NCBI GenBank assembly: GCA_013216135.1
Contig: JABSOS010000012.1
Span: 1 to 64,000, forward strand
DNA: 64,000 bases
Reading direction: 5' to 3'
Source of the DNA: Candidatus Caenarcanales bacterium
GTDB lineage: Bacteria; Cyanobacteriota; Vampirovibrionia; LMEP-6097
Of this stretch, positions 191 through 62,645 are shown piece by piece. The translations under genes and the position numbers were made by a program. The stretch's first letter is position 1, and the number at the start of each line of letters is the position of its first letter. The notes beneath the pieces are model-generated. The model was given only the letters and a program-made list of their open reading frames with translations, was not told the DNA's origin and ran no database searches.

Positions 191-1363
191 TTAGAAGTCA
201 CTAATGTCTATATCACTATGATTTAAAACTTTAACTCCAGGGAGCTTAGTACCTGAGTTTGCTGAGCAAACTAAATAGAGCTTCGTTTCTTTATCAAAAA
301 GCTTAGAAATAGTTTTTAGATTTTCAGTGTGTCCAATGTTTGGTGTTGCAGATGCTTTTATCTCAAAGCATGATGATTTTTCTGCTGAGTCCATAATTAA
401 ATCAATTTCTAAACCATTATTCTCTCTATAAAAATATAATGAACTTTCTCTCATTTTAGTCATATTTTGCCTAACAAATTCACTCACTACAAAATTTTCA
501 TACAGTGCTCCTTGCATGGGACCACTTTTAATTAATTCTGCTGTCTTATGCTTAGTCAGATAACTTACTAGACCAGTATCATAAAAATATAATTTTGGTT
601 TTTTAGTAATTCTTTTCCCAAAGTTTTTAAAATAAGGTGGAATTAAAAATATGATTTGTGATCTGATTAGAAACGATATCCAGGTTTGGATTGTTTTTAG
701 ATCAACCCCTAGCTCTTTAGATAAATTATTAAAGTTTAATTCCTGCCCTACTCGTGTTGCTAGTAATTCGACTAGGCGGCTATAGTTAAAAATATTTTTC
801 TCGCGAAGATGTTTACTAACATCCCTGTCTATGAAGGTTTTTATGTAAGAACCAAACCATAATTCGGTATTTAGATTTTTGTTTATCCATAATTCAGGGT
901 AAAAACCTTTATAGCAAAGCTTTTCCCATGTTTGAGTCTTTTTGAGAATACCTTGTAACTCTAATAACGAAAATCCTGAAAGTTCCATAATAGCAGCCCT
1001 CCCTGCAAGGGATTCCTGCACACCTTCCATTAGAGAAAACTGTTGAGAGCCAGTGATAATAAATTTTCCAGCTTCTTTATTGTTATCGATTTCAATCTTT
1101 ACATAAGAAAGTAATTCTGGGACTTCTTGGATTTCATCAAGTATGACTTGCTTTTGAAACTCTCCTAAAAAGCCTTTTGGATCTTCTTTTGCATAATTTC
1201 TCAAAGATAAATCATCAAAACTGATATATTCTGCTTTCGGGAAAAGATGTTTTACAAGAGTCGATTTTCCCGTTTGTCTTGCACCAGTTATAACCAATGC
1301 TGAAAAGGATTTACTAGCAGTAAGGATCTTTTCTTCCAAGGCTCTTTTTATATATTTCGCCAT
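191..1363 (-). CDS. AAA_14/DUF4143-type ATPase (paralog 1)
   Basis: Walker A GARQTGKST, Walker B-like VILDEIQEV, ITGSQQF sensor-like motif, SLAGRAAIMEL, C-terminal FYRENNGLEIDLI nuclease-like motif; typical AAA_14 + DUF4143 layout. Confidence 0.9.
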   Translation of the reverse strand: MAKYIKRALEEKILTASKSFSALVITGARQTGKSTLVKHLFPKAEYISFDDLSLRNYAKEDPKGFLGEFQKQVILDEIQEVPELLSYVKIEIDNNKEAGKFIITGSQQFSLMEGVQESLAGRAAIMELSGFSLLELQGILKKTQTWEKLCYKGFYPELWINKNLNTELWFGSYIKTFIDRDVSKHLREKNIFNYSRLVELLATRVGQELNFNNLSKELGVDLKTIQTWISFLIRSQIIFLIPPYFKNFGKRITKKPKLYFYDTGLVSYLTKHKTAELIKSGPMQGALYENFVVSEFVRQNMTKMRESSLYFYRENNGLEIDLIMDSAEKSSCFEIKASATPNIGHTENLKTISKLFDKETKLYLVCSANSGTKLPGVKVLNHSDIDISDF

Positions 1364-1579: not shown

Positions 1580-4500
1580 TCATGAAGTCGCTGATACTTT
1601 GGCATCAAATTTATTAGTTCTCTCTACAACTTCATTATAATTATCAATAAATTTATCTAAATTTCTTTTATTCACTGTTGCTAAAACATATTTAGCTAAG
1701 TGTTGACTCTTAAGCATTTGAAGATTTAGTTTTTGAGAAAGAGTTGTAGAAGGTTTAAAGCGTGGTAAGACTAGGTGGTTTAATTCATTCATGTTTTCAA
1801 TCCTGATATATTTTTGTGGAATATTTTTTACTTTTAAAGCTTCCTGTTTATTCATTTGATCTATCAAAAGAAGTCTTTGCAAATCATAAAAGTCTATTTG
1901 TTTGAAGTATTCTTTAGTACCGCTCTTTGTCGCTGGTGATGGATATTTTAAATCTCTAGAAAAAATATCATCAATATTTTTTTTATTTGATTCATAAAAA
2001 TTATCAAAATTATTTTCTAGGTTAATAAATGTTAGTTTTAGTTCTTCTAGGAATTTTGAGTCTTGCTTGTAGAATATTTTCATATCATCTAATAGCTTAT
2101 CTATTAACTTTATTCTGTATTCTTCAAGTTTTGTTGAAGTAAATGGAGTCTTATCAATTAAGCTTGCATAAACTTTTTGTAAAGTTAGATTACCTAAAGC
2201 TTCGTCTTTATCTTCAGATATAAGCTTTGAAAGTCTTTTTTTATCCCAAATTTTAGGGTGGTATTCTAATAATATTTTGTCTTGGTGTCCCATCTTTATT
2301 AAGAAGTCACCTTTAAATCTTTTAAGTAATGGTATCTGAAAATTTTCACCGATTTTAATATCTTCAATTAATCCATGCTTTTGTAAAAATAGTGATGCAA
2401 TTCTTTCTTCTTTTGATGCTGCAGTAGGGATATCAAGAATTTCATGCTTCTTAATATTTTCCAATCTTTCTAACAATTCAATATTTGGCAGTAAGGTTTT
2501 TTGTTGGAGTGAGGTTAAGCAATATGCTTTTAAATTATTTATATCCGTTTTATTAATTGACCATACTGGAATTAGGCTTGGTGGCAAAAGTTTTCTTTGA
2601 AAGTTAATTTTGGTTTTATTTCCTTGTGTATCATCAAATTCAATAAATCCATTATCTTCGTCAGTAATGTCTATCGCATCATTTAAATATTTAGGTAAAG
2701 TTGAAAAGTTTTCAAAATTTTCTTTTTTTAGTGCATTCACATTAATTGGTAACTCCTTTTCAAAATCAACAAGCGGGAATTGGTTGAGATTATTTTCTTT
2801 TAGGAATAATTCAAAACTTTGAAGGTCGTCTCTTTTAAATGACCAAACTGGAATTTGTCCGCCACCTTTCTCAGGGACTTTTTTCAATAATGTAATATCA
2901 GAAAAATTTTGAGACTTACTTCTTAATATAGCTTCTGATTCAGATCTCTGTACTAGGTTATTGAGAACTAATTCTGGTATTAGGTGAGCATTATTGAACT
3001 TCTCTTTTAATAGTGTTCTTCTGTATATTCCAATCTCTTTACTAGAATCAATTTTTTCAAGTTTATCTCTTGATATCATTTGTGCTGAAATCATCTCTTT
3101 ATCTTTAAGGAAAGCTAAAAAACGGTTTAAATCTTCTCTTTTAAAGCTCCAGACTATACTTCTGTGAGAGCTTTTTGTAACTTTTTTTTCTAGATGAATA
3201 GGTTCTAATTCTTTATCATTGAAAAATAAATTTGCATTTTTATCATCTTCTTCAATGATATATTCTTGGATTGCTTTTTCTAAATTTGTAAATCCTGGGA
3301 TTCTTGCTTGTTCTAGGTAATGTTTTGTTAGCCCTATATCTTTGTCTGGGTCAAGTTCCTTATAGATGGAAGTATTTTGTGCGTTGATGAAATTATTTAA
3401 TCTTCCTAAGTCTTCCATTTTTATGGTCCATATATTTCCAGATCTTGAATTAACTTTTTTTCTCAAGTCTATGTATTCTGTTTCTTTAGTTTGAGGGTCT
3501 ATATATTTTATGTATGCATTATGGTCTGATTCTTGAATTAATGAGTTCATTATTAACTCATAGCTATTTTTGTAATTGCTTATTTTCGCCTCTTTAAATG
3601 CCCTGATTGTTACTTGAAGCTCCTGCTCTGGGGAGTATTGCTGAGAATTTGATTTTAGAAATAATATGATTTTATCTAGGTTTTGAATATTTGTTATATA
3701 TTTATTAGAGTTCTTTGACTGTTTTATCGTAAACTCAATTACTTCTAGTTTTTTGTTTTCAGGATTAATAAATCTTAGTTCAGCTTTATCATCAGATATA
3801 TTATTAATTGATCTTGTTAAAATCTTCTGATGGTATGGAAAAGCTTCAATATTGTGCTCCTTGAATAATTTTCTTAGATTATTTTCATTATTGATTATAA
3901 AAGTGTCTTTAACAGTCTTTTTTCTAGGAGTTTGTTTTTGAGTGTTTTCCTTACTTATTTGTAGTTTTTTGTTTTTAACAAAATTATTTATATCTTGTAA
4001 ATATTCTTTGGGGGTAGTCCATAATGAAAATTCTTGTCCTTGCTTTTTGGTGAGAGGAGTATATGACTCCTCACTAAGTTCAAGGTAGCCAGAATAATCA
4101 TTAATAAATTTAGGTACTCTATTTACTAGGTCAGTATTGAACTTCTCTTCTTTTAAGTATCTAGTATTAATTCCAAATTCTTTTTCAGTTTTGATAAATC
4201 TCTCACTTTCTTTTAACTCAACAAGTTCTTCTATTAATCTCTCAAACTTTTCTTGATCCTCTTGTTTAAAAGTCCAGTGAGCTATTTGTGAACAGTGACC
4301 TGGTAGCTTTTTGCTAAGATGAAGTGGGTCTTCTTTTCCTTCTTTTGATAGCTTAGTATCTAAAATCACTTGATCACTAGTTTCATTCTTTAATCTTTCA
4401 TTAATAAGTTCGGTAACTTTCTGGCTATTAGGAATTCTTGCTCTTTGTAATGATTTTCTATAGACTCCTATCTCAGTTTTAGGGTCCATACGTTGGGTCT

Positions 4501-4867
4501 GACTAAAACCTCGTTTATCTATAATTTTTAAAAAGGCTGCTTTATCTCTTCTTTGGATTACCCAAATCGGTGATTTATTACCATCTAAAGGGTGAATCTT
4601 TTTTTGAAGCTCAATTGATAAGCTATTATCGGCGCTTTGTAAGATACCTGAAGTCGGTGAACTTATAACAAGTAAACTTTCTATCTTCTGGGAAAGAGGT
4701 TGAGCATAATAGAACCCTTCTTTTCTTAGATTACGTTCTGACATAGCAATCTCGGTTTCTGGATTAAGAAGTGAGAAATTTTGAACATCTTGACTTGCGA
4801 TATTCTTATTGTTTCCCAAGGTTTGCTCTGTTTTTGTTCTTGTATTTTTGGTTGTATCTAATAACAT
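1580..4867 (-). CDS. Large orphan protein with about eight divergent tandem repeats of about 94 aa
   Basis: Long ORF; internal repeats read by eye with recurring EIGIYRRxLxxExI...IxLxKKV...IPVWSFKRxDLxxFxxFLK pattern. Confidence 0.8.
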   Translation of the reverse strand: MLLDTTKNTRTKTEQTLGNNKNIASQDVQNFSLLNPETEIAMSERNLRKEGFYYAQPLSQKIESLLVISSPTSGILQSADNSLSIELQKKIHPLDGNKSPIWVIQRRDKAAFLKIIDKRGFSQTQRMDPKTEIGVYRKSLQRARIPNSQKVTELINERLKNETSDQVILDTKLSKEGKEDPLHLSKKLPGHCSQIAHWTFKQEDQEKFERLIEELVELKESERFIKTEKEFGINTRYLKEEKFNTDLVNRVPKFINDYSGYLELSEESYTPLTKKQGQEFSLWTTPKEYLQDINNFVKNKKLQISKENTQKQTPRKKTVKDTFIINNENNLRKLFKEHNIEAFPYHQKILTRSINNISDDKAELRFINPENKKLEVIEFTIKQSKNSNKYITNIQNLDKIILFLKSNSQQYSPEQELQVTIRAFKEAKISNYKNSYELIMNSLIQESDHNAYIKYIDPQTKETEYIDLRKKVNSRSGNIWTIKMEDLGRLNNFINAQNTSIYKELDPDKDIGLTKHYLEQARIPGFTNLEKAIQEYIIEEDDKNANLFFNDKELEPIHLEKKVTKSSHRSIVWSFKREDLNRFLAFLKDKEMISAQMISRDKLEKIDSSKEIGIYRRTLLKEKFNNAHLIPELVLNNLVQRSESEAILRSKSQNFSDITLLKKVPEKGGGQIPVWSFKRDDLQSFELFLKENNLNQFPLVDFEKELPINVNALKKENFENFSTLPKYLNDAIDITDEDNGFIEFDDTQGNKTKINFQRKLLPPSLIPVWSINKTDINNLKAYCLTSLQQKTLLPNIELLERLENIKKHEILDIPTAASKEERIASLFLQKHGLIEDIKIGENFQIPLLKRFKGDFLIKMGHQDKILLEYHPKIWDKKRLSKLISEDKDEALGNLTLQKVYASLIDKTPFTSTKLEEYRIKLIDKLLDDMKIFYKQDSKFLEELKLTFINLENNFDNFYESNKKNIDDIFSRDLKYPSPATKSGTKEYFKQIDFYDLQRLLLIDQMNKQEALKVKNIPQKYIRIENMNELNHLVLPRFKPSTTLSQKLNLQMLKSQHLAKYVLATVNKRNLDKFIDNYNEVVERTNKFDAKVSATS

Positions 4868-4987
4868 ATTAGGCGTGCATTATCTTGAGTATTTTAACTC
4901 ATGTATATTTGTATTTCAAGTTTTTGAATATTCTTTTATATATAATCTTTTGACTCAATATTTTAATTTATTTTTAGGATAGATAAA

Positions 4988-5018
4988 ACATTCAAGATAG
5001 TGTTATTATCTTGAATGT
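4988..5018. promoter_or_regulatory. Perfect 12-bp inverted repeat (operator or hairpin) between divergent genes
   Basis: ACATTCAAGATA-GTGTTAT-TATCTTGAATGT, perfect arms, 7-nt spacer. Confidence 0.6.
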
Positions 5019-6945
5019 CGTGGTGTCGCTTACAAGTACAAATATAAAACTATTACCACCTGAGATTCCTCAAGCAAGTCTTGGTGCAGCCAGTGTGTAC
5101 AATTTACCTGAAAACAAGAGAAATGCTCCAGAAGCGAATGATCACTCATTGAAATGCGAATATATTGAGCCTGGATTCCCTTGCACCGTCTTCCCTAAAA
5201 TTAACTCAAAGAAAATTATTAAAGATTCAGAGAGTTTTGCAAGTTTATCTTACAATGACTTGTCTAGAAGTGGAGATCTAGCTATTGCTGGTGATAATCC
5301 AGAAGAAAGGGCTTTGGGGAAAATTCTTAGAAATATTAAAGTTAGAGCTCTGCTTGAAAACTATTCAGGTTCTAATACTAAAGTGAAATTAAGAAAATTA
5401 GTAAGGAACTTGTCTCTGGATACTATAGACTCTCATAGAGATAAACATATTAGCTCTCAACTATTTAGGGTTATTAAAGACTATTTCCCTTTTGAAGACG
5501 GTAAATTTCTTAAAAGAGACTCTGGATTTAAGCGGTCTGCAGAATTGTATTTGAATAATTTAAAAGACTATCAACCATATTTATATGAATTAGCAAATCG
5601 TTCATCTAAGCAATTTGCTGCAAAATATGCCGATAAAGATATTAATACGATTGTTTCTATATCTGCACATAGTTCTGAAAGTAATTTGAAAAATACCTTA
5701 AAAGAGCTTAATGAGATATTCCCAAATGGGGAGTCTGGTTCAGTGTTCTTATTTTTGAATGGACAAAATACTAAGGAATTGAACCAGAGGCTTGAAGAAT
5801 TACAAGAGTTTAAAAAAGATAACCCTGAATTTGATTTAAATGTTATTTCAGCCGTAGTTCCAGAGTGGGTAAATGGTTTTAAAGCTATACCGACTTTAAC
5901 TGGTTTGATGACTAAGAATAAGGTCTCTGATAAAGATGCAGATGTGCCTTTAGTATTTTTTGATTCTGACATAATTAAAATTGAGAATAAAAATGAAATA
6001 AAAAATGATATTAATGCTGTTAAGAATGGAGCTATTGTTACAGAGCAATATCATTTTAATATTGATAATAAGCGGGATGCCTTAAAAGAGTTCTGTAAGG
6101 ATGATTTAGATGTACAAGCTCTCAGGAAATTTACTGATATTCTAAATGCTCTGTACCGTGGTCTAATTATTGATGATCATGATAAGCAAGAGCTGGGTTA
6201 TGATTTGGATGAAGAAAAGTTTAATTATGGTATAGAAGCCTCTGGTGGTTATAGTGTCTGTTCTTCAATGCTTCATATGCTGTGTGGTGGTATAAGTCCT
6301 CATGTTAGTAATGAAGATACAGATCATCATACAAGAGAAACCAGTAGACTTGCTTTAGCTACAAAGTCTAATTTTTCAAGTTTCGAAAATTTTAGAGATG
6401 CTGCTATTGCAAATAAAAACCGCCCACGAATTTCTTTTGATGATGATGGGGTCTCCCGGATTATTAAAAACCAACAACCTATTTATCAACAGTGGCATTC
6501 ACATGATGGTATGAAAGGGAGCTTATATGATATTTTTCAAAGCTCTGATAAGCATAAGGATACTATTACTAGTCCTGCTTTTGAATACCTAGCGCATCGC
6601 TTTCTTCCTGAGTTGAGAGCATCAATGTCTAAAGCTTTAGATATAAATTCAAAATATTTTTTAAAAATGAGTGGGGGAAAGAAATCTTGGGATAGTAACT
6701 ATGATGAAATTTTCAAAAAGAAGTTAGAGGTTTTTAATAAAGATATCAATAAGCTTATCAAATCATTAGATCCAGATTTCCCTCTCGTAGAGGTTTTACT
6801 ATGTTCTTTAGAAGGGGAAGATGATAAGAGATACTTGTTTTTAAAAGTATACGAAAAAGGTCTTCGAGACGGAATGGTAAAGGGTGATTTGATTGACTCT
6901 ACTATTCATTTGAAATATGAGGGTAAAGAAGTTCTCGTTGACTAG
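5011..6945 (+). CDS. Orphan 644-aa protein; possible GT-A-like glycosyltransferase core
   Basis: Long ORF; INTIVSISAHSSESNLKNTLKEL... followed by VPLVFFDSDII resembles a GT2-like first strand plus DxD motif. Start uncertain: TTG 5011 or GTG 5020/5023. Confidence 0.4.
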   Translation: MNVVVSLTSTNIKLLPPEIPQASLGAASVYNLPENKRNAPEANDHSLKCEYIEPGFPCTVFPKINSKKIIKDSESFASLSYNDLSRSGDLAIAGDNPEERALGKILRNIKVRALLENYSGSNTKVKLRKLVRNLSLDTIDSHRDKHISSQLFRVIKDYFPFEDGKFLKRDSGFKRSAELYLNNLKDYQPYLYELANRSSKQFAAKYADKDINTIVSISAHSSESNLKNTLKELNEIFPNGESGSVFLFLNGQNTKELNQRLEELQEFKKDNPEFDLNVISAVVPEWVNGFKAIPTLTGLMTKNKVSDKDADVPLVFFDSDIIKIENKNEIKNDINAVKNGAIVTEQYHFNIDNKRDALKEFCKDDLDVQALRKFTDILNALYRGLIIDDHDKQELGYDLDEEKFNYGIEASGGYSVCSSMLHMLCGGISPHVSNEDTDHHTRETSRLALATKSNFSSFENFRDAAIANKNRPRISFDDDGVSRIIKNQQPIYQQWHSHDGMKGSLYDIFQSSDKHKDTITSPAFEYLAHRFLPELRASMSKALDINSKYFLKMSGGKKSWDSNYDEIFKKKLEVFNKDINKLIKSLDPDFPLVEVLLCSLEGEDDKRYLFLKVYEKGLRDGMVKGDLIDSTIHLKYEGKEVLVD

Positions 6946-14162: not shown

Positions 14163-14513
14163 ATGAATAATAAATTAAATATCTATGCTTTTGCATTAGT
14201 ACTTTTATCATCACCTGCTTTTGCAAATGAGTCTTTAGACGCAGCTAAAAAAACTATCAGTGAAACTACAGAAGCTGTAAAGCAAGAAGCTAACGTGCAG
14301 CCAGCTAAAGCTATGACTTGGTTAGAGCAGTTTCAGGCTTGGTTAACTGAGATTCAAGGACAAAGTAAAACTACGCTTAAAGATATTAAATCTAAGAAAG
14401 AAGAGCTCAAAGCAGCTGCTAAAAAGACTGAGGAGTTTATAGAGGAAGAGAAAGAATTTCTTGAAGAAGCTTCTAAAGAAATTTCAGCTGAGCTTGATGA
14501 TATTTTGGATTAG
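14163..14513 (+). CDS. Putative secreted coiled-coil protein with WLEQFQAWL motif (copy 2)
   Basis: Signal peptide ...ALVLLSSPAFA; MTWLEQFQAWLTEIQ. Confidence 0.65.
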   Translation: MNNKLNIYAFALVLLSSPAFANESLDAAKKTISETTEAVKQEANVQPAKAMTWLEQFQAWLTEIQGQSKTTLKDIKSKKEELKAAAKKTEEFIEEEKEFLEEASKEISAELDDILD

Positions 14514-15391
14514 ATTTTATATTCGAGTATAGGTACTTTCATAAGATTAAACATATCTTTTAGAAAGCCATCTATGTATTTAGCTATACCTAAATTATTT
14601 TCTTCAATATGATTTAGAGCAGTTTCTATAATTCCATTAAATGATTCAGCGATTTCTTTTGTCGTTCCAGTAAATAGATGCATTATTAATTCTGCAAATT
14701 TTTTGGGTTCTTTTACTGCTGAAATCTTTTTAGGTTTTCCTTTTTCATATTCAAGTAAATCAAAATCTTCAATAATTCCTTCAAAGAGTTCTACCAGTTC
14801 TTTACGAATTGGAAATTGATCGTGAATTCCTAGTTTCCTGCTAATATCAGGGTTCACTAGAAATAGTTTTTCTCTCATTATTTTAAATTTATACTCTAAG
14901 CTTTCTTTAAACTCTTTACTATCAAAGATTTCTCGAACTGTTAAGCCAAGAAACTTATTATTTTCAGTAGCTTCATCCAGCTCTTTTAAAATTAAGGCTT
15001 CCATTAAATTTCGAGCAGCACCATAAAATCTGTATTCTAGATCTTTATGGTCAATATTTTTTAAAGACATTAATGAATCTAATTCTGAAAACCTTGTCAC
15101 AAACTGATCTAGATTTTCTAAAATTTCCTCGGTTTTTTTTATGCTTTGGTCTGATTGGTGAATATCCCTGAGAGCTTTTCTTTCTTGATCATTTAAGTTT
15201 CTTTTTTGAATTCCATCTTGGTAATCTTGCTCACGTATTTGTGATAGTAAAATTTTTTGAGCTAGATATTCCTTAACTTCTTTTCGCGGAATTATTTTCT
15301 GAGAACTTGGAACATCGAAGAAAGCAGATTTTCCATGCTCTTTCAGTTTTTGATTTGCATACTGCAATAGAAATAGAGGGTAGGTCTCCAT
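14510..15391 (-). CDS. Hypothetical protein
   Basis: 293-aa ORF, charged/helical, no recognised motif. Confidence 0.55.
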   Translation of the reverse strand: METYPLFLLQYANQKLKEHGKSAFFDVPSSQKIIPRKEVKEYLAQKILLSQIREQDYQDGIQKRNLNDQERKALRDIHQSDQSIKKTEEILENLDQFVTRFSELDSLMSLKNIDHKDLEYRFYGAARNLMEALILKELDEATENNKFLGLTVREIFDSKEFKESLEYKFKIMREKLFLVNPDISRKLGIHDQFPIRKELVELFEGIIEDFDLLEYEKGKPKKISAVKEPKKFAELIMHLFTGTTKEIAESFNGIIETALNHIEENNLGIAKYIDGFLKDMFNLMKVPILEYKI

Positions 15392-21927: not shown

Positions 21928-23115
21928 ATGATTTATGTAGGTAGAAAATTAAGTGAATATTGTCATAAATTAGCAAAGCAATTTGCTGTAATTTTAGTAA
22001 CAGGCGCTCGGCAAGCAGGTAAATCAACTTTACTTAGAAATATCTTTCCGAATCACCAGTATTTAAGCTTAGATGATTTGAGAATTCGAACTCAAGCCAA
22101 CGAATCAACAGCGACTTTTCTTGATTTTTACAAAAGCCCACTCATTATAGATGAGGTGCAATACGCTCCAGATCTACTTTCATATATAAAAATTATTGTA
22201 GATGAAAAGAAATTTAAAGATGAAAAATTTCAAGGAATGTATATTCTGACTGGATCTCAAAAGTTTGAGTTGATGGATCAAATCAAAGAATCTTTAGCTG
22301 GTAGAATGGCAATTCTAAACTTAAATACTTTATCAATTGAAGAATTATCTCAGCAAGAAGGAGATTTACCTTTTTGGACTGAATGTGTTTATAGAAGTTT
22401 ATATCCTGAACCATTCCTAAATAAAGACTTAGATTTAAGAGTTTGGTTTGAGACTTATGTACAATCTTGGTTAAATAGAGATATTAGACAAAATCTGAAA
22501 AATAGTCATCTAGCTGTTTTTGATAAGTTTCTTAGTTTGATTGCAACTAGGATTAGTGCTGAAGAAAATTTTACTGACATAGCAAAGGAATTAGGTGTAA
22601 GTAGACTTACTGTACAATCTTGGGCTTCACTACTTGAGAAAACTCAAGTCTTATACTCACTTCAGCCTTACCATAATAATCTTGGTAAACGGATTATAAA
22701 GTCATCAAAGTTGTATTTTTTAGATACTGGTCTTGCTAATTATTTATCAGGTTTCTTCACCCCTGAACAAATAAGTAATAGTATTATGACTGGAGCCTTC
22801 TTCGAGAATTTTATTGTTACTGAAGCCATTAAGTTCTTCGAGAATAGAGCTATAAAAGCTCCGATTTCTTTTTTTCGTGACAGTAATGGTCTGGAAGTTG
22901 ATTTGATTATCGAATATGAGAGCAGGGTTCTTGCAATAGAAATTAAAAGCACGGATAACCCCAGAAAGCAGCATTTGAAAGGTTTGCATAAGTTTACAAA
23001 ACTTTTTGATAGAAAAATAGAGACTTATTTAGTTTGTAATTCAAAGACTAGAATGATGGTGTCTGATGAGGTTCAAGCTATTCCATGGCAGGAATTACCA
23101 GCTCTACTTTGTTGA
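21928..23115 (+). CDS. AAA_14/DUF4143-type ATPase (paralog 2)
   Basis: GARQAGKST, LIIDEVQYAPDLL, LTGSQKFELM, SLAGRMAIL, FFRDSNGLEVDLI. Confidence 0.9.
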   Translation: MIYVGRKLSEYCHKLAKQFAVILVTGARQAGKSTLLRNIFPNHQYLSLDDLRIRTQANESTATFLDFYKSPLIIDEVQYAPDLLSYIKIIVDEKKFKDEKFQGMYILTGSQKFELMDQIKESLAGRMAILNLNTLSIEELSQQEGDLPFWTECVYRSLYPEPFLNKDLDLRVWFETYVQSWLNRDIRQNLKNSHLAVFDKFLSLIATRISAEENFTDIAKELGVSRLTVQSWASLLEKTQVLYSLQPYHNNLGKRIIKSSKLYFLDTGLANYLSGFFTPEQISNSIMTGAFFENFIVTEAIKFFENRAIKAPISFFRDSNGLEVDLIIEYESRVLAIEIKSTDNPRKQHLKGLHKFTKLFDRKIETYLVCNSKTRMMVSDEVQAIPWQELPALLC

Positions 23116-27386: not shown

Positions 27387-28184
27387 ATGATTTCTATGAA
27401 TCAGTTTGCTATAACTAGAACACCTACTTTAAGAGATAATATTCAAAATTCTAAAATAGAAGTAAACCCTAAAGACAATAAAGAAAAAAAGGTTACTGGT
27501 TTAATAAAATTAAATAGATCTTTTTCTGCATTGCAGTCGAGTCCAAGACAGGCAGCAATTTTTAATTTGATAGCAGATTTTTATCAAGACTTTAAAAACT
27601 CTAATTTTGAGAAAACTTTCTTCGGGAAAGATTTAGATGAAAAATTAGATAAACTATATAAGAGACCGATTTCTCAAGCTAGTATAAACACAGTAAAAGA
27701 AGTTAATGACGGTGGATATATAGATAGATTTTCTTTAGAAAATTTACAAAAAGATCTATATATTAATAATGCAATAGTAAGGTCTGAGATTAGTAAAAAT
27801 TCATCTGAATTTTATGACTCAAATTTAGAGCTTCTTCAAAAGCTAGAAGAAGATTTAGGGAAAAAAGTTTTAAATAGTGACTTTGACGCTAAGCCTTTTA
27901 ATGATAAATCTAATCAGTTAGAATCATTGAGGTATTTTGCTGTAATCGATGCTAGAGATTCAGGTTCAAATAGGAACAAGTTTTTAGATGCGCTTATTGC
28001 AAAAGAAGTTAGTGCTGGTAAGGGGGCATATGATGATGTCTATAAGGGCTTAGTTAAAGAGAGTAATGAATATATAAATAAAATTATTAAATGGGAACAA
28101 GACTTTGCTGATGATGTGATAAGTAAAGCAAAAAAAGCTATTGTGAAGGATGGTTTTGCTTTATCTCATAACTCTATTCGATAA
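27387..28184 (+). CDS. Hypothetical protein
   Basis: 265-aa ORF, charged/helical. Confidence 0.5.
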   Translation: MISMNQFAITRTPTLRDNIQNSKIEVNPKDNKEKKVTGLIKLNRSFSALQSSPRQAAIFNLIADFYQDFKNSNFEKTFFGKDLDEKLDKLYKRPISQASINTVKEVNDGGYIDRFSLENLQKDLYINNAIVRSEISKNSSEFYDSNLELLQKLEEDLGKKVLNSDFDAKPFNDKSNQLESLRYFAVIDARDSGSNRNKFLDALIAKEVSAGKGAYDDVYKGLVKESNEYINKIIKWEQDFADDVISKAKKAIVKDGFALSHNSIR

Positions 28185-31856: not shown

Positions 31857-34097
31857 TTAACTATAGGCTTTAGCTTCTTCTAGTAAAGAATTGGTGATGT
31901 CTCGAAGTCCCGAGTTCTCCATTAGAGTTTCGAAATTCATTGCTCTGAAAGGCTTTATAATTGAGTTACTTGCCATTATAGGAGTTGAATTTTTTTCAGC
32001 AAATGTAATTTGTTTAAATGTTACCTCATCTGTATTTCCACTACTTTCACTAAGTTCATTAAGATTTGGCAAAACCGGTATTTCAGAGTTAAGACCAAAT
32101 AATAATCTAGCGTATACATCTAGCGCATAGGGTTTTCCACTATCTTTAAATTTTCCTGAGTAAATCTCTTGGATGTTTTTGTTATCACCTATGATCTCAT
32201 TTAATCTATCATTATGAGTAACTCCAGAATAACTTTCTAGATTTGTAGGGTGGGATAAACCTTCATTATTTTTGCTGCCTTCTAATTTTTTAGTTCCTTG
32301 GCTAATATGATGGAGGTAGTGATTTGTGATTTCTTCTTTAGGATTTACTAAGCATGCTTCACCGCCGATAATACTATCTCCATTACTTATATTTTCAAGT
32401 AATTTATTTTGAGCAGCTAATATAAGGTCCCCTTCAATTGGGTCTTGGTCGTTAGGTTTTTTAATTTCTACAACTGTAGCTTTTTGCTTAACGACTTGGC
32501 TGTTTGTGTAATCCTTATCACTTGCTATAAGTCTTGAGCTTACATGCTCATTTTCATTGTTATTTTCAATATCTTCAAATTTTAGGGTTATTGTTCCGAT
32601 GAAATTATCACCTTCTGATAGTTTCAAATATATAAACTCACCACTTTCTGCTCGGTCATTGTGTTTTTTAGAGGAAATAAAACATGTACCATCTTCAATA
32701 CCTAGTTGTACTAAGTCCTTTGTTGATGTAATTTGTTTAATCGTAACAATTTTATTAGTTCCATTATGATTTACTCCCATAGAGAAGCCATCCATTGGAA
32801 TTTTTTCAGACCAAGCTTTATTTGGTATCAAGGCTCTAGTATGAGTAGTAGGATCTTGTTCTGAGTTGTAATTTTTCCATTCTTTCATACCATCAGGGAT
32901 TTCATCTAACCTTAAACCATTTTCTATAGCGTGTAATAGTACATTTGGTGCATTCTTTAAAGCTGCTTCTTCTATTACATTTGGATAACCTTCTTCGTCA
33001 CATAGACGGTCATGTTCAGCTGTTGGAATATGAAGAGCCGCGTCCATGCTTAGAAGTTGCATTGTTATTGCCCCATAAGTTTCTTTTAGTTTATTGCTAA
33101 GACCTTCTATATTGCCATTAGTATCAGTCTTAAATAAATCATTGACTATTGACTGAGTCTTCTCTGGGGTTGAAAAGGAGAGTGCAGCAAATTTTAAATG
33201 CTTTGCTTGTAGTTTTGATAATCCCGTTAAAACTGAATCCATCCCAGTTTCATAACCAATATTAGTTTCTTGAGATAGTTGAGATGCAAATTGGTCACTA
33301 AGGTAGATCAAGGCTGCAGCTGCTTTTACCTCATTCTGAGCTTGTGAAGGATCAGTTTTCGCTCTATTTAAAAGATTGACTACTGGACTTTTTTTAGCTT
33401 TTGATTTGATCTTAGCTAAAATATTATTGAGTTTTTCTGCTCCTATTTGCTTCTCTAATAGGAAATATATGTCTTTTGAACCAATGCCGTTATTTATTGC
33501 TTGATTGATTTTTTTACCTTTAATTTGCCCTATTGGTTCTAAAATTTCTGATTTTGGAATTTTGCCTGAAGCGATATTTACTCTTAAATTTGATTCTTGA
33601 TTTGCTGGTAGCTTAGAGTCTAATTCTACTTCTATTCTTTGAGTAATTAATGCTTCATCGGGCTTTTCAAGATGTAAAATTCTCTGCATATATTCATTAG
33701 AACTGAATGGCTTTATTGAATTAGCTTCAAGCGGCTTTAAAGGCTTATCCATCTCATAAAAACCTTTAATCTCAGTTTCTATATTTTCTGCTATCTTTAG
33801 TAGATCTGGAAAAGCACCTCCTTGACCAAGAACTTCTTTCATTTGATTTAAGGTGCTCATCGTTTCTTGATGTTTAGTTTCATTTATCAAGCCGTCTGTT
33901 TTAGCTTGATCAACATTGTCACTAAAAGCTACAATCATGTCACATAAGTGCTTTGAAAGTTTCTCTAGACTCGCTGCTTCTGACTCTACCTCTTCACTTG
34001 TTCTATCAACAGTAGCTTCTTTTTTAATCTTTTCCTGTTGATATTTTGCATCATTCACTAACCTCACACCAGCTATATTATTTATAATGCCATCCAT
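31857..34097 (-). CDS. Large hypothetical protein
   Basis: 746-aa ORF without recognised domain. Confidence 0.55.
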   Translation of the reverse strand: MDGIINNIAGVRLVNDAKYQQEKIKKEATVDRTSEEVESEAASLEKLSKHLCDMIVAFSDNVDQAKTDGLINETKHQETMSTLNQMKEVLGQGGAFPDLLKIAENIETEIKGFYEMDKPLKPLEANSIKPFSSNEYMQRILHLEKPDEALITQRIEVELDSKLPANQESNLRVNIASGKIPKSEILEPIGQIKGKKINQAINNGIGSKDIYFLLEKQIGAEKLNNILAKIKSKAKKSPVVNLLNRAKTDPSQAQNEVKAAAALIYLSDQFASQLSQETNIGYETGMDSVLTGLSKLQAKHLKFAALSFSTPEKTQSIVNDLFKTDTNGNIEGLSNKLKETYGAITMQLLSMDAALHIPTAEHDRLCDEEGYPNVIEEAALKNAPNVLLHAIENGLRLDEIPDGMKEWKNYNSEQDPTTHTRALIPNKAWSEKIPMDGFSMGVNHNGTNKIVTIKQITSTKDLVQLGIEDGTCFISSKKHNDRAESGEFIYLKLSEGDNFIGTITLKFEDIENNNENEHVSSRLIASDKDYTNSQVVKQKATVVEIKKPNDQDPIEGDLILAAQNKLLENISNGDSIIGGEACLVNPKEEITNHYLHHISQGTKKLEGSKNNEGLSHPTNLESYSGVTHNDRLNEIIGDNKNIQEIYSGKFKDSGKPYALDVYARLLFGLNSEIPVLPNLNELSESSGNTDEVTFKQITFAEKNSTPIMASNSIIKPFRAMNFETLMENSGLRDITNSLLEEAKAYS

Positions 34098-34271: not shown

Positions 34272-36215
34272 TTGCGATTTTTTGATGGATTTGAAAAAAT
34301 ATTATTTCCTAATCAAAATAAAGATCTTATTAAAAACATTGCACTGGACTTAAATTCAGAAAAAAAAATATTTTTAACTGATGGTAGTTACTTTGAAGTA
34401 GATAAACCTTTAATTATTGAGGCTAAAGCTAATCCAAAGCCAGAAGACCTTCTCAATGAAAAATTATATAACCGAGATCAAGGTCGTGAAGTTTATATAG
34501 ATGCTTTGCGCCGAAAATTAGGTGATTTCATTAATAAGTTAGAGATTAATAAGCCTGATATTGAGAAGCTTATTAAGATTTTTGATAATATTCTGTCTAG
34601 AAATTCATACCATTATCTTTCTAGTGATGAGAAGCTTGATAATGATAGAAATGAAAAATATTTTGTGTTTTCTGAATATAAGAGTTTACCTGAAATTAAA
34701 CTCGGGGAAAATTATAATCAATTAGAGAGTTTTTCATTAGATGCCTTTACTAAATTCAGTACCCCATCTAATATGCGCTTAACTGCGAAGAGTTTATTCT
34801 ACTTAAATACTTTATCTAATGGATTTCATGATGTAGACACAGCAAAACTTCTTCAAGCTTATAAAAAAAGTAGTGATCATTTAAGTAATCTTTTATTATC
34901 AGAATTTATTCTCAATAAAATTAATAAATTTGCAGATGATGACATTGAGCAACTGTTAAATATTATGATGCAGAAAAATCAATTAAGTTCAAATTTAGGT
35001 AAAGCGATTAGATTTTATAAACCACAGTTAGCAACTAAGTTTTTTGAAGAGCATATGAACGCTTATCCTTCATTAGGCGATATAAGTTTGACTGAGCTTA
35101 CCACTAATAAAGAACATTACCGTAAATTAGCTAAGAATGATTTATTAGATGAAAATTTTTACTTTGGGGCTGATGAAATTCCTCTTCTAGAGCGAGGTAG
35201 TGTCGGGATAGAGGCTGAAATGCTTTTGAATAAAGAAGAATATGATGTTGTTAATAATCAAGCAATCACTTTAGGTCGAGATATTAAAGGTATTCCAGAA
35301 TACAGAACTAATCTTGGTGGGTTACCAATAAATGAACAAAGTCTTGAAAATTTATTTAATATATTCTCCTCTTTGAATAGAAGTTCAAATTTCCTTTCAC
35401 TTGAAAGCAATCATATTACTCTTGATGGGCATCTTGAAGATACGAGTATCTTTGCTGTGAAGAAAACTGCAGATGCAGCAATTGATGAAAGTTTTGCTAA
35501 AGATGTAACTGAGTTTAATACGCCTACTATTTCTGCAAGAGTAAATGGAAAAGAAATATCATACATAGCTGATATTCAGACTTTATATGACCAAATCTAT
35601 TTACTAGATGAGCTGAAATATGTGATGGATTTTGACGAAAAGAACTTATCTCAAAAAGAAAAAAATGCTCTGGTTGAAAGTATTCGTTCATATTTTAAAG
35701 CTGAGGATTTTAATGATCAGAAAGCTGCTGGTGAAGATCTATTACTTCAACTTGCAAATATCGAAGGAAAGCAGAAATTATTTTTCCCAATACTTAGATT
35801 AGCTTCAAATGGAACTACCCCTCCTTTAAGTGACAAGCAGGTTTTAAGTCTATTATTGAAATTAGAGGATAATATTCAGGATCTAGATTTAAATAAAGAT
35901 TTTGATTTTTCAGATATTGTGATTGAAAATAAAAAATTGAAAAATGTTGATTTATCTGATGCTCTTTTAATTAATGCTAAGATTCTGAATTCTGAAATTG
36001 ACGAAGTTAACTTCGAAGATGCAAATCTTTCTTTTGTTGAAATTAAAGATTCTAAGGTTTCGAACTCTAGCTTCAAGGGAGCTTTTCTTGATAACGCTGA
36101 AATAAGTGACTCTGATTTTCTTGATACTAATTTTCAATTTGCAAGGTCTGTTGGAGCTAAGCTTAAGAATGTTGATTTAAGTAAATCATTAAACTCAGAG
36201 TATTTGGTGAGTTAA
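34272..36215 (+). CDS. Large hypothetical protein with C-terminal pentapeptide-repeat-like segment; possible amidoligase-like core
   Basis: C-terminal NVDLSDALLINAKI..VNFEDANLSFVEI..SSFKGAFLDNAEI; central GSVGIEAEML..PEYRT. TTG start. Confidence 0.5.
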   Translation: MRFFDGFEKILFPNQNKDLIKNIALDLNSEKKIFLTDGSYFEVDKPLIIEAKANPKPEDLLNEKLYNRDQGREVYIDALRRKLGDFINKLEINKPDIEKLIKIFDNILSRNSYHYLSSDEKLDNDRNEKYFVFSEYKSLPEIKLGENYNQLESFSLDAFTKFSTPSNMRLTAKSLFYLNTLSNGFHDVDTAKLLQAYKKSSDHLSNLLLSEFILNKINKFADDDIEQLLNIMMQKNQLSSNLGKAIRFYKPQLATKFFEEHMNAYPSLGDISLTELTTNKEHYRKLAKNDLLDENFYFGADEIPLLERGSVGIEAEMLLNKEEYDVVNNQAITLGRDIKGIPEYRTNLGGLPINEQSLENLFNIFSSLNRSSNFLSLESNHITLDGHLEDTSIFAVKKTADAAIDESFAKDVTEFNTPTISARVNGKEISYIADIQTLYDQIYLLDELKYVMDFDEKNLSQKEKNALVESIRSYFKAEDFNDQKAAGEDLLLQLANIEGKQKLFFPILRLASNGTTPPLSDKQVLSLLLKLEDNIQDLDLNKDFDFSDIVIENKKLKNVDLSDALLINAKILNSEIDEVNFEDANLSFVEIKDSKVSNSSFKGAFLDNAEISDSDFLDTNFQFARSVGAKLKNVDLSKSLNSEYLVS

Positions 36216-38845: not shown

Positions 38846-38878
38846 CTCAAATACTAAAAGTTGTGTTTAGTATTTGAG
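38846..38878. promoter_or_regulatory. Perfect 13-bp inverted repeat upstream of AAA_14 paralog 3
   Basis: CTCAAATACTAAA-AGTTGTG-TTTAGTATTTGAG; 7-nt spacer, 21 nt from the ATG. Confidence 0.65.
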
Positions 38879-38899
38879 TATTGGTGGTATGATGTGTTT

Positions 38900-40132
38900 A
38901 TGGATAGTATAAAAAGAGATTTGAAATATACTATTTTGAAGCTTCTCAAGAGTTTTCCTTGTGTTACTTTAATCGGAGCAAGGCAGGTTGGAAAATCAAC
39001 ACTTTTAAGGCAGGTAGCTCCAGATGCACCATTCTATGATTTGGAGCAGAATAGTCATTTTGAAATGATTGATGGTGATCCAGAACTTTTTTTAAAGAAT
39101 AAAGATGAATTAATTGTTATTGATGAGGCTCAGCTTTCGGGCTCTTTATTTTCAGCTTTAAGAGTTAAAATAGATGAAAACAGAAAGAAGAATTCTCAAT
39201 TTTTAATTAGTGGCTCTAGTTCACCAGAGCTTTTAAAAAACATTAGTGAGTCTCTTGCAGGTAGAGTTGCTATTGTTGAGGTTCCTACTTTAAGCTGGTC
39301 AGAAGCTTTAGGTAAAAAAAAATCTGAATTCTATCATCTATTAGAAAAGCCTGAAAAGTTTTGTAACTTGAAGCTTAACTATGATGGTCATGATTTGCTG
39401 AAGCTTTGTACATATGGTTTATATCCAGAGCCTTTTTTGAAACTCAAGTATGAGGAGGATTCTACGACATATAACGTTTGGCAAAATTCTTATTTTAGAA
39501 CTTATATAGATAGAGATGTGAGAAGCTTGTTTCCAAAACTTAATCTTGAAACATATAAGAGGTTTATAAAGATGCTTTCGATGTCATCAGGTGAAATTTT
39601 AAACTATGCTAGCTATGCTAAATCATTAGATATCTCTGAACCTAGTATTAAAAATTATATGGAAATAGCTTCTGGGACTTTTATCTGGCGAAATATTCCT
39701 GTTTATTCAAATAGTATGAAGAAGCGTTTAATAAAAAGTCCGAAGGGACAGATGAGAGATAATATTTTAATTAATTTTATCCTTAAATTTAATTCAGTTG
39801 AAGATTTGATGAGCCACCCGAATTTTGGTAACATCTGGGAATCTTTTGTTATAGAGCAATTAGTGAAAAACTTAGAGTCAAATTTAATATATGGAAGTTA
39901 TTATTATTATCGAACACATGACGGTGCAGAAGTTGACTTCATTCTTGAATCTAAACTAGGACTTATCCCTATTGAAATTAAATCTGGGTCTAGTACAAAA
40001 AAATCTCAATTAAAATCACTCAGTAACTTTATTAAAGAGCATAATTGTCCTTATGGCATAGTCATAAACCTAAGTGAAGAAGTCTATCAAATAACAGAAA
40101 GCATTTATCAGGTTCCAGCAAGCTTTATTTAG
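38900..40132 (+). CDS. AAA_14/DUF4143-type ATPase (paralog 3)
   Basis: GARQVGKST, LIVIDEAQLSG, LISGSSSPELL, SLAGRVAIVEVPTLS, YYRTHDGAEVDFI; start revised to ATG 38900. Confidence 0.9.
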   Translation: MDSIKRDLKYTILKLLKSFPCVTLIGARQVGKSTLLRQVAPDAPFYDLEQNSHFEMIDGDPELFLKNKDELIVIDEAQLSGSLFSALRVKIDENRKKNSQFLISGSSSPELLKNISESLAGRVAIVEVPTLSWSEALGKKKSEFYHLLEKPEKFCNLKLNYDGHDLLKLCTYGLYPEPFLKLKYEEDSTTYNVWQNSYFRTYIDRDVRSLFPKLNLETYKRFIKMLSMSSGEILNYASYAKSLDISEPSIKNYMEIASGTFIWRNIPVYSNSMKKRLIKSPKGQMRDNILINFILKFNSVEDLMSHPNFGNIWESFVIEQLVKNLESNLIYGSYYYYRTHDGAEVDFILESKLGLIPIEIKSGSSTKKSQLKSLSNFIKEHNCPYGIVINLSEEVYQITESIYQVPASFI

Positions 40133-43668: not shown

Positions 43669-45021
43669 ATGGGAAAATTGAAAAATAAAAGCTCAAATTA
43701 TAAAGTTATTGACGACTGGAAAGACTTTGATAAGTCTAAGTTAATGTCATTAAGCGCTGATTACTATAGCGAAAAAGGCATAGACGCCTTCTCTAGAGTT
43801 AAATCTTCTAATATTATTCCTTCAGAAACTTCTTGTTCATATGCCCATGCGGAGTCATTAGCTTTGCTGCTTAAAAATCAAATGGACATGAATCCTAATA
43901 AAGGAGTTTTCAAAGTATTAGAACTAGGTGTCGGTAGTGGTTTATTTTCATATAATTTTTTAAGAGCAGCAGAGAAGCTAGGTATTATAGATAAAGTAAA
44001 TTACTGTGTTTCTGATTTTAATGAAAATATACTAGTAAAAATAAAGGATTTAGAGTTTTTAGATCAATTTGAAAATAATGTGAATTTTCAAGTTATTGAT
44101 TTACTTAATATTGATAGTTCCTACAGTTTAATAAATACAGATTATAAACTTGATGATTTAGATTTAGTTGTTGGGAATTATCTCATGGATGTGTTTCCAG
44201 CATTGCCTGTGAAGTTCTCGAATAGAAATATTGGTGAATTGGATAAATTACAGGTAAAAGTATCACAACCAAAAAATTTACTTGATGAAGACTTATATTC
44301 TAATGACAAATTATTCAAAAATCTGAAAATTGAGGAAAGATATGTAACATATGATTCTAAAGATTTCTCTGATTTAGAGGCTAACTATATAGATCTTTTT
44401 CAAAACTATGTCAGGAAACATGATTCTAGAGTTCCTAGGATTTATCCATATGGTTATGGTTCTTTAAAGGCTTTAGAAAATGTTGTCTCTAGGTTAAGTA
44501 ATGAAGGTTTTTTCTATGTCATGGATGTACCTTACCGTGAAAACGCAAATATAAAACCTTATGATACTTATGGAAATACTGTTGCAAATCATGTGAATTT
44601 TGATTTGATGATTTGCTTGCTAGAACAAAACAATAATTCTTTTAGGTATACAAGAAATGACTATTATGGGCGTTTATTAGTAGCTCGCAATGATAAGCTT
44701 CTATTTGATTTTAGTGAAAAATATTCTTTTATTGATGAGTTCATGGCTAATAACCCTATTAACTTATATTCTGATCTGATAAGGGCAATATCTATGATTA
44801 AAACGAAAGAGGGTGTATCAGTATTAGGAACTTTAATAGATAGTCTTGAAAAAATATCTCCAAATGAAACTACAACTCATTTAATTAGGGCAGATTATCA
44901 TACTATGAAAAAAGACTATTCTAATGCTTTAACATTTTTGAATTTAGCTAAAGATGCTGATAAAGCTGGTATGTATAAAGTTAATACTGAAATTAGTAAA
45001 ATTAAAGCATTAATGAAGTAA
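43669..45021 (+). CDS. SAM-dependent methyltransferase (MidA-like) with C-terminal TPR-like tail
   Basis: VLELGVGSGLFSYNFL motif I; VVGNYLMDVFPALPV; TPR-like C-terminus. Confidence 0.6.
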   Translation: MGKLKNKSSNYKVIDDWKDFDKSKLMSLSADYYSEKGIDAFSRVKSSNIIPSETSCSYAHAESLALLLKNQMDMNPNKGVFKVLELGVGSGLFSYNFLRAAEKLGIIDKVNYCVSDFNENILVKIKDLEFLDQFENNVNFQVIDLLNIDSSYSLINTDYKLDDLDLVVGNYLMDVFPALPVKFSNRNIGELDKLQVKVSQPKNLLDEDLYSNDKLFKNLKIEERYVTYDSKDFSDLEANYIDLFQNYVRKHDSRVPRIYPYGYGSLKALENVVSRLSNEGFFYVMDVPYRENANIKPYDTYGNTVANHVNFDLMICLLEQNNNSFRYTRNDYYGRLLVARNDKLLFDFSEKYSFIDEFMANNPINLYSDLIRAISMIKTKEGVSVLGTLIDSLEKISPNETTTHLIRADYHTMKKDYSNALTFLNLAKDADKAGMYKVNTEISKIKALMK

Positions 45022-46446: not shown

Positions 46447-47283
46447 TTAAGAATTTGCTTTGGTATAAATCTCCAGTAATTTTTTGACTTGTTCTTGATG
46501 ATCTTTTTCATCCCAGGTATTCCATGGTGCATTATTTTCACGCCACATTTTTTCAAGGTCTAACTTGTCTTTTAATGTGTCCATTGGATGCCAGAAACCA
46601 TTGTGCCTGTATGCATTTAATTGACCTGCTGCAGCTAAAGTTTCAAGTGGCTCTCTTTCCCAGATGGTTTGGTCATCTTCAATTAAATTTAAAACTTGAG
46701 GGTTAAGTACAAAGAAGCCACCATTGATCCAACCTTGTTTCTCATCAACAGGTTTTTCCATAAACCCGACTACTTCAGCATCGTCATTTAGGTTTAAAAC
46801 ACCAAATCTTTTTGGTGGACAGACTGCTGTTAGTGTTGCAAGTTTACCTGAAGATTTATGGTGTGCAATTAATTCTTCTACATTGACATCAGAAACACCA
46901 TCACCATAGGTCATACAGAATGGCTCATTGCCGACAAATTCTTGGATTCTTTTTAATCTCCCGCCTGTCATAGTATGCTCACCGGTATCTACAATAGTAA
47001 CCTTCCAAGGTTCACAACCATTGTGATGAACTTCCATGTCGTTGTTTGTCATATCAAAAGTTATATTTGATTGATGGAGAAAATAGTTTGCAAAGTATTC
47101 TTTTATTAAAAAGCCCTTATAACCAGCACAAATGATAAATTCATTAATGCCATAGCTTGAATAAATTTTCATAATATGCCAAAGAATGGGCTTGTTACCC
47201 ACGTCTATCATAGGCTTAGGGCGGATTTGAGATTCTTCTGCGATTCTGGTTCCGAGACCACCAGCTAATATTACTGCTTTCAT
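46447..47283 (-). CDS. rfbF: Glucose-1-phosphate cytidylyltransferase
   Basis: VILAGGLGTRIAEESQIRPKPMIDVGNKPILWHIM, CMTYGDGVSDVNVEELI, GWINGGFFVLNP; SD AAAGGAG. Confidence 0.93.
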   Translation of the reverse strand: MKAVILAGGLGTRIAEESQIRPKPMIDVGNKPILWHIMKIYSSYGINEFIICAGYKGFLIKEYFANYFLHQSNITFDMTNNDMEVHHNGCEPWKVTIVDTGEHTMTGGRLKRIQEFVGNEPFCMTYGDGVSDVNVEELIAHHKSSGKLATLTAVCPPKRFGVLNLNDDAEVVGFMEKPVDEKQGWINGGFFVLNPQVLNLIEDDQTIWEREPLETLAAAGQLNAYRHNGFWHPMDTLKDKLDLEKMWRENNAPWNTWDEKDHQEQVKKLLEIYTKANS

Positions 47284-47450
47284 AAATAGTCTCCTTTGAG
47301 AACTATAAGCCCTTATTTAATATAAAAGTCATAGTGTGTTTAGATTATATTTACTCTGGGCTATAGTTTCAATGTCTATGATTTAACTAAAGTTTTGTCT
47401 CATCTGTCCATTGATAAACCTAGATATATAATTTGATTAATATAATGAAA

Positions 47451-48440
47451 CTAGCCTAGATAACTTAGGTTGCTAAGATCTGGTACGTAGTATTTTGCTT
47501 TACCGTCTGTTTGCTCTAATACACTTAGCTTAGTGTTTTTTTCTTTACTAGTACTAATAATCCATTCTGCTAATTCTTTTATAGATATTTCTTGAGAAGA
47601 GCCAAGGTTGAATATATTTTTCCCATGTTTATTTAGTAGCATTTTAAAAATATATATAATCATGTCAGAGCTATGTAGGTAAGAGCGAATGGTTTTACCA
47701 TCACCTTTGATTGTAATATTTTGTTTTTTTAACACAGAGTTTAGAAAATTAGAAAAAGCAAAATGGCTATTTAGTGAAAAGTATTCACCAAAAAAGCTAA
47801 AACCTCTTGCAATAGTATATTGGTCTTGTGAAAAAGAACTCTGGACTAGTTTTTCTGCAATACGTTTGCCATCTCTGTAAGCATGAAAATCTGTTTCAAT
47901 AATGCTGTGAACATCTATTGTTTCTCTAAAATCTTCTTTCCTTACTTTGTCAAAGCCATAAACAGCCCCTGAACTTAAATAGAGAAACTGTTTTAATTTA
48001 TATTTTTTACTTAATTTAATTAAATTATAGGTTCCTTCAACAATAGTTGTGAATTGATAAAGTGCTTCGTTGTTATTTTCGGGGATTGTCGTATCTGTTG
48101 CTGAGTGAATAATATAGTCTAAATCTAAGTTAATTTGATTTGCGAATTTAGGTGAGCTAATATCAGCTTCTATTAATGATAAATATGTGAGGTCTTGAAA
48201 CTCTGGATACTCTATCAGAAATTTTTCAGGGTTCCTAGAAATACCTATGATAGAGATATTAAGAGGGTTATTTTTTTTGAATTCAATTAGTGTTCTTAAA
48301 ATATTTTTTCCGATAAAGCCAGTAATACCTGTGATTAAGATACTTGTGTTATTTAACTTAGTTAGTAGTTCCTGAATTTCAGTAAAAATATACTGGTAGT
48401 CATTACTTATGAAATCGTTGATAGTTTGTATCTCTCTCAT
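47451..48440 (-). CDS. NAD-dependent epimerase/dehydratase (extended SDR)
   Basis: ILITGITGFIGKNILR, YLSSGAVYG, YRDGK (YxxxK). Confidence 0.88.
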   Translation of the reverse strand: MREIQTINDFISNDYQYIFTEIQELLTKLNNTSILITGITGFIGKNILRTLIEFKKNNPLNISIIGISRNPEKFLIEYPEFQDLTYLSLIEADISSPKFANQINLDLDYIIHSATDTTIPENNNEALYQFTTIVEGTYNLIKLSKKYKLKQFLYLSSGAVYGFDKVRKEDFRETIDVHSIIETDFHAYRDGKRIAEKLVQSSFSQDQYTIARGFSFFGEYFSLNSHFAFSNFLNSVLKKQNITIKGDGKTIRSYLHSSDMIIYIFKMLLNKHGKNIFNLGSSQEISIKELAEWIISTSKEKNTKLSVLEQTDGKAKYYVPDLSNLSYLG

Positions 48441-51859: not shown

Positions 51860-51868
51860 ATAAATATT

Positions 51869-52666: not shown

Positions 52667-52747
52667 TTATGGAATTATCTAGTTTTTGTGCAAAATCAAA
52701 CAAAACTAAATTTTTTTGAGATTGTTCTTCGATGAATTTCTCTTTAG

Positions 52748-53549: not shown

Positions 53550-53712
53550 TTTAGATAAGACCATTATTAATTTCAAGCCATAAAAATTAAAATAATTAAC
53601 TCGATTACTTTGATGATAATTAAACCTGCATTAAAGTCACTGGAGTAGGCTTATTCGGTTTGATATAAAAGTTACTTCTGTGGTAAGTTGAGAATAGATC
53701 TAAATAACTATA

Positions 53713-55861: not shown

Positions 55862-55939
55862 TATTGGGAAAGTAATAAAATAAGTATAATCTAATACAAA
55901 TATTTGAATGATACTTGCTAATCAAGAAGGAAAAATGTA

Positions 55940-56554: not shown

Positions 56555-56555
56555 A

Positions 56556-58818: not shown

Positions 58819-58844
58819 ATTACTGTCAAGCTAATAGATAATAG

Positions 58845-59516: not shown

Positions 59517-59525
59517 ATATTTTAG

Positions 59526-61514: not shown

Positions 61515-61555
61515 GCATCAAAAACAAAATAACACAGAATTTGCTGAAAGTCTAT

Positions 61556-62608: not shown

Positions 62609-62645
62609 ACAGTTAAAATTTTACTTGAATATTATAATCGGTCAA

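What the first reader, a model, noticed from the sequence alone, without database searches (positions are those of the whole stretch)
2515..4765. Eight-copy tandem domain array in a 1095-aa orphan protein
The protein at 1580-4867(-) splits into about eight consecutive units of about 94 aa. Each unit has [KE]xEIGIxRRxLxxExI at the start, an acidic middle (ExxxNAxLxFxD), then IxLxKKV...IPVWSFKRxDLxxFxxFLK. Examples: TEIGVYRKSLQRARIPN..HLSKKLPGHCSQIAHWTFKQEDQEKF; KDIGLTKHYLEQARIPG..HLEKKVTKSSHRSIVWSFKREDLNRFLAFLK; KEIGIYRRTLLKEKFNN..LLKKVPEKGGGQIPVWSFKRDDLQSFELFLK; KELPINVNALKKENFEN..NFQRKLLPPSLIPVWSINKTDINNL. I do not recognise the family. The pattern suggests a repeated small domain (possibly nucleic-acid or peptide binding) followed by a non-repeated C-terminal region of about 280 aa.
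Basis: seen in the sequence. Interest (0 to 1): 0.75.

Follow-up and report, generated by a model that had tools for sequence, protein, structure and literature searches.

The report
Orphan protein with eight tandem domains
A long bacterial protein of no known family is built from eight diverged copies of one small folded domain plus a conserved tail, and its only detected relative is a nine-copy sister gene in the same genome; the structure is real, but its function is still open.

Summary
P0001 (window 1580-4867, minus strand, 1095 aa) carries eight diverged copies of a roughly 90-aa domain at aa 35-790, then a non-repeated 305-aa tail. Leave-one-out profiles score every copy above 200 shuffles of itself, weakest for unit 4. 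The genome has one paralogue on another contig: 1228 aa, nine units, about 41% identical, unit order kept. No relative was found in the 8 other genomes of the order, 383 others of the class, 387 of the phylum, two GTDB motif scans, phages or plasmids; no Pfam, NCBIfam, PHROG, PADLOC or PDB sequence matches convincingly. AlphaFold2 folds one unit with confidence (pLDDT 90.5, pTM 0.81) as β-α-α-β-β-β-β-α. No PDB fold matches, and no winged helix. Borderline matches exist to uncharacterised giant-virus proteins. The tail holds a near-invariant segment, KGDFLI..KILLEYHPKIW, that recalls PD-(D/E)XK nucleases by eye, but profile tests against DUF559/RAP failed. Best reading: a soluble binding arm of 8-9 specialised domains with a C-terminal working or anchoring domain. 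Ligand and activity are inferred, not shown.

The parts
1580..4867 (-). whole gene, 1095 aa
   Evidence: one other gene of this kind in the genome
4502..4765 (-). unit 1, aa 35-122
   Evidence: leave-one-out 33.1 bits vs 5.0 best shuffle
4205..4486 (-). unit 2, aa 128-221
   Evidence: 45.0 vs 6.7 bits
3953..4195 (-). unit 3, aa 225-305
   Evidence: 26.3 vs 10.5 bits
3632..3892 (-). unit 4, aa 326-412 (weakest copy)
   Evidence: 15.1 vs 9.5 bits
3353..3631 (-). unit 5, aa 413-505
   Evidence: 58.6 vs 9.0 bits
3077..3355 (-). unit 6, aa 505-597 (the unit modelled)
   Evidence: 67.0 vs 7.2 bits; AlphaFold2 pLDDT 90.5
2777..3049 (-). unit 7, aa 607-697
   Evidence: 66.3 vs 9.1 bits
2498..2767 (-). 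unit 8, aa 701-790
   Evidence: 47.8 vs 8.9 bits
1583..2497 (-). non-repeated C-terminal tail, aa 791-1095
   Evidence: 44% identical to the paralogue's tail; no family
2246..2314 (-). near-invariant tail segment KGDFLIKMGHQDKILLEYHPKIW, aa 852-874; PD-(D/E)XK-like by eye only
   Evidence: profile test negative
4891..4919 (-). promoter-like site (TTGAAA-17-TAAAAT) just upstream of the start codon; such sites occur here at chance frequency

Best explanation
P0001 is a soluble, probably cytoplasmic, modular protein. Eight separately folding alpha+beta domains (order beta-alpha-alpha-beta-beta-beta-beta-alpha), each with its own conserved identity, form a multivalent binding arm; the conserved C-terminal domain does the work (catalysis or anchoring) where the arm has bound. 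Shown: eight copies, a paralogue with the same architecture and unit order, constraint on the protein, and a confident prediction (not an experiment) for one unit. Inferred: that the units bind something, that they sit like beads on linkers, and that the tail is the working end. Ligand and chemistry are unknown.
For: All eight units pass leave-one-out tests. One unit folds on its own as a compact domain at pLDDT 90.5, pTM 0.81. Most units pair with one partner in the paralogue: six pairs group with support 0.85-1.0 and pairs are 24-51% identical, mostly more than to neighbouring units, as expected if each unit has its own partner. The tail is conserved along with the array. No signal peptide or membrane segment by hydropathy. 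Codon-position differences of 45, 34 and 58% fit selection on the protein.
Against: No ligand, partner gene or activity was identified. No family with known function matches. The bead arrangement was not modelled; only one unit was. Binding is assumed from the general behaviour of tandem domain arrays, which is recalled knowledge.
Confidence: 0.45

Rival explanations
1. Nucleic-acid-guided nuclease: the units read DNA or RNA and the tail is a diverged PD-(D/E)XK nuclease (D854, E868-x-H870), working like the repeat-plus-RAP proteins of organelles.
For: The tail segment with D and E 13-14 residues apart is the best-conserved part of the tail. Both arrays are mildly basic overall, pI 8.5-8.8.
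Against: No Pfam RAP or DUF559 match; a 59-sequence DUF559/RAP profile gives no HMM match and an hhalign score inside the range of shuffled columns. Six of the 17 units are acidic in net charge by -3 to -6 or near it, and there is no shared basic face that could be shown. The test had little power, since only two tail sequences exist.
Confidence: 0.15
2. A protein delivered to a eukaryotic cell (alga or protist), using the array to bind host targets.
For: Borderline fold similarity of the unit to Mimiviridae proteins, some annotated as ankyrin-repeat proteins. Vampirovibrio chlorellavorus, in what is probably the same class, preys on Chlorella and was proposed to use a type IV secretion system (PMC4451040).
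Against: No VirB4-type ATPase in this genome or 19 relatives. No secretion signal by hydropathy. The fold matches are borderline and probably one family. Lifestyle of this organism is unknown.
Confidence: 0.15
3. A structural spacer or scaffold in which unit number sets length and the exact units matter little.
For: Unit number differs between the paralogues (8 versus 9) with register kept; units are strongly diverged.
Against: Individual units are conserved one-to-one between paralogues rather than interchangeable, which suggests unit-specific roles.
Confidence: 0.15

Closest known systems
Uncharacterised Mimiviridae proteins in BFVD (K7Y878, M1PLS0, H2E9T3; annotated ankyrin-repeat proteins A0A6G6ACL1, H2EFP1)
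   Same: Best fold matches of the unit: E 0.02-0.10, Foldseek probability 0.84-0.99, TM-score 0.38-0.52
   Different: E-values are borderline, the hits are probably one family, their sequences could not be fetched, and no tandem array of this domain was seen in them
RAP / DUF559 PD-(D/E)XK-type domains (tail)
   Same: D and E with a short spacing between two predicted strands, by eye
   Different: No profile similarity above shuffled columns; E-x-H instead of the usual E-x-K
Tandem-domain scaffold and receptor arrays in general (recalled knowledge)
   Same: Many diverged copies of one small domain, joined by linkers, with a distinct end domain
   Different: This unit belongs to no Pfam, NCBIfam or PHROG family and matches no solved fold

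Membership tests
Winged-helix / HTH domain (unit) | Three-helix core with HTH and a beta-hairpin wing | tested here: not met
   Model order is beta-alpha-alpha-beta-beta-beta-beta-alpha with two short helices; no HTH among 50 listed PDB matches
PD-(D/E)XK nuclease of the DUF559/RAP kind (tail) | Profile similarity to the family | tested here: not met
   hmmscan, HMM and hhalign negative; score inside the shuffled range
PD-(D/E)XK nuclease of the DUF559/RAP kind (tail) | Acidic catalytic residues on adjacent core strands | tested here: inconclusive
   D854 and E868 conserved in both paralogues, but the tail model is poor there
Mimiviridae domain of K7Y878 and relatives (unit) | Same fold | tested here: inconclusive
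   TM-score 0.38-0.52, E 0.02-0.10
Mimiviridae domain of K7Y878 and relatives (unit) | Sequence homology | not testable with these tools
   viral contig collection gave no answer
Type IV secretion effector | A VirB4-type secretion ATPase in the genome | tested here: not met
   PF03135 absent from this 92%-complete genome and 19 relatives; control genome rings. Other secretion routes were not tested

The most novel reading that the evidence does not exclude
The unit is a new small alpha+beta fold, shared outside this genome only with uncharacterised giant-virus proteins, used here as an 8-9-copy targeting array that positions a C-terminal enzyme.
Probability: 0.1. Interest if true: 0.75.

Novelty: new variant of a known kind. 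Interest (0 to 1): 0.42.

Why it matters
A domain that is predicted to fold with confidence, has no family and no solved counterpart, and occurs 17 times in two paralogous proteins of one genome is a clean target for structural work and a test case for how tandem-domain arrays arise within a single lineage. If the giant-virus resemblance proved real, it would connect an uncultured bacterial lineage with proteins of viruses of protists.

Tried and rejected
Winged-helix/HTH reading of the unit: not supported by model or fold search. DUF559/RAP membership of the tail: profile tests negative. G027 hit to the unit profile (E 0.027): an SMC-type coiled-coil protein, chance. G565 and G238 hits to the tail: the first is on the strand opposite a WD40 protein, the second overlaps a guanylate-kinase-like ORF, both chance. 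Origin of unit 3 as a chimera of B3 and B4 halves: half-unit identities do not support it. T4SS effector route: no VirB4. Fold search of the tail model: meaningless, as expected at pLDDT 49. Viral contig scans did not complete, and the unit alignment has no stretch conserved enough for that search. A paper search on the giant-virus domain returned nothing. A first script failed on a missing file and a first DUF559 alignment held wrong frames; both were redone.

Full report
Observation. Ungapped self-comparison gives diagonals scoring up to 70 over 40 residues, where the maxima of 30 shuffled proteins lie between 31 and 51. A profile of the units finds eight copies and nothing convincing in the tail. 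Because that profile was built from the units themselves, each unit was also scored against a profile of the other seven: 33, 45, 26, 15, 59, 67, 66 and 48 bits, against a best of 5-10.5 bits from 200 shuffles of the same unit. The array is real; unit 4 is the weakest copy.

Anatomy. Units lie at aa 35-122, 128-221, 225-305, 326-412, 413-505, 505-597, 607-697 and 701-790, with short linkers, followed by a 305-aa non-repeated tail. The shared pattern is E-[IL]-G near the start, a helix with L and [IF], an A-x-L strand, an I-x-L-x-K-K strand, W-[ST]-x-x-R-x-D-L and a final helix F-x-x-F-L. Units are mostly 10-30% identical to one another. Hydropathy shows no membrane segment and no signal peptide.

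Paralogue. The genome (3.08 Mb, 52 contigs, 92% complete) holds one other gene of this kind, on contig 52: 1228 aa, nine units, a tail of the same kind, about 41% identical. The unit tree pairs A1-B1, A2-B2, A4-B5, A6-B7, A7-B8 and A8-B9 with support 0.85-1.0, with A5 and B6 in a looser group together; the difference in unit number falls at unit 3 versus B3/B4. The array was therefore laid down before the gene duplication and the units have been kept distinct since. Differences by codon position (45, 34, 58%) fit selection on the protein, although third positions may be saturated.

Distribution. No relative was found in 58 near relatives, the eight other genomes of the order, 383 other genomes of the class or 387 of the phylum, nor in phage and plasmid records. 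Two motif scans of 85,462 GTDB genomes found none, but each rests on two short motifs and can miss distant relatives. No Pfam, NCBIfam, PHROG, PADLOC or PDB sequence matches convincingly. Metagenomes were not searched and the viral contig collection did not complete, so 'orphan' means orphan in what was searched. Taxonomy is my inference from kinship and genome sizes (a class of small genomes inside a phylum with large cyanobacterial-type ones): probably Vampirovibrionia, order Caenarcaniphilales. No tool named it.

Fold of the unit. AlphaFold2 with the 17 units as alignment gives mean pLDDT 90.5 and pTM 0.81, in the order beta-alpha-alpha-beta-beta-beta-beta-alpha. Against the PDB no match is better than E 0.2 and the best listed TM-score is 0.34, to a KA1 domain. 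Against predicted viral proteins the ten best hits have E 0.02-0.12, probability 0.57-0.99 and TM-score 0.33-0.52; six of the ten are named Mimiviridae proteins, two of them annotated as ankyrin-repeat proteins. These are probably one family rather than independent hits, so I treat them as a lead only. The winged-helix suggestion is not supported.

Tail. Two sequences give only a poor model (pLDDT 49) and its fold matches are meaningless. The best-conserved part is around KGDFLI..KILLEYHPKIW, with 62% identity over 40 residues. By eye it recalls PD-(D/E)XK enzymes of the DUF559/RAP kind. I tested this by collecting DUF559 and RAP relatives and building a 59-sequence profile: no HMM match, and an hhalign score inside the range of shuffled columns. 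With only two tail sequences the test has little power; it removes support for the claim without excluding it.

Mechanism. The most likely reading is a soluble modular protein whose 8-9 specialised domains form a multivalent binding arm and whose conserved tail is the working or anchoring end (confidence 0.45). Shown: the copies, the paralogue, one-to-one conservation of units, and a confident prediction for one unit. Inferred: binding, bead-like arrangement, tail as the working end. A nucleic-acid-guided nuclease, a protein delivered to a eukaryotic cell, and a structural spacer each remain possible at about 0.15. Against delivery, no VirB4-type ATPase was found here or in 19 relatives, although Vampirovibrio chlorellavorus was proposed to use a type IV secretion system (PMC4451040).

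Judgement. A real, unclassified, apparently lineage-restricted tandem-domain family with a confidently predicted unit fold and unknown function. The kind of architecture is familiar; the domain is not.

Noticed in passing
window 5011-6945 (+): Divergently transcribed 644-aa neighbour with no Pfam, NCBIfam, PHROG or PADLOC family. It has a paralogue on contig 1 (31% identity) and relatives in two genomes of the same family. Its middle looks like a GT-A glycosyltransferase by eye.
   Followed up: partly
window 191-1363 (-), 21928-23115 (+), 38861-40132 (+): Three AAA/DUF4143-type ATPase genes in one window; the first matches Pfam DUF4143/AAA_14 and PADLOC candidate PDC-S01. The other two were recognised by eye only.
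   Followed up: partly
window 14510-15391, 27387-28184, 31857-34097: Further proteins without any Pfam match; this genome seems rich in large orphan proteins and is larger than the other eight of its order.
   Followed up: partly
window 34272-36215 (+): 647-aa protein with pentapeptide repeats only at its C-terminus.
   Followed up: partly
window 46447-63993: Nucleotide-sugar and NeuB-like genes that look like a nonulosonic-acid/surface-glycan cluster by eye.
   Followed up: no
window 4987-5019 (-): 13-pair inverted repeat between the divergent genes, scored as terminator-like; could also be an operator.
   Followed up: no
L005 9564-10910 (-) and window 43669-45021 (+): Paralogous-looking methyltransferase-like proteins, one near each contig's copy of other repeat genes; resemblance seen by eye only.
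   Followed up: no
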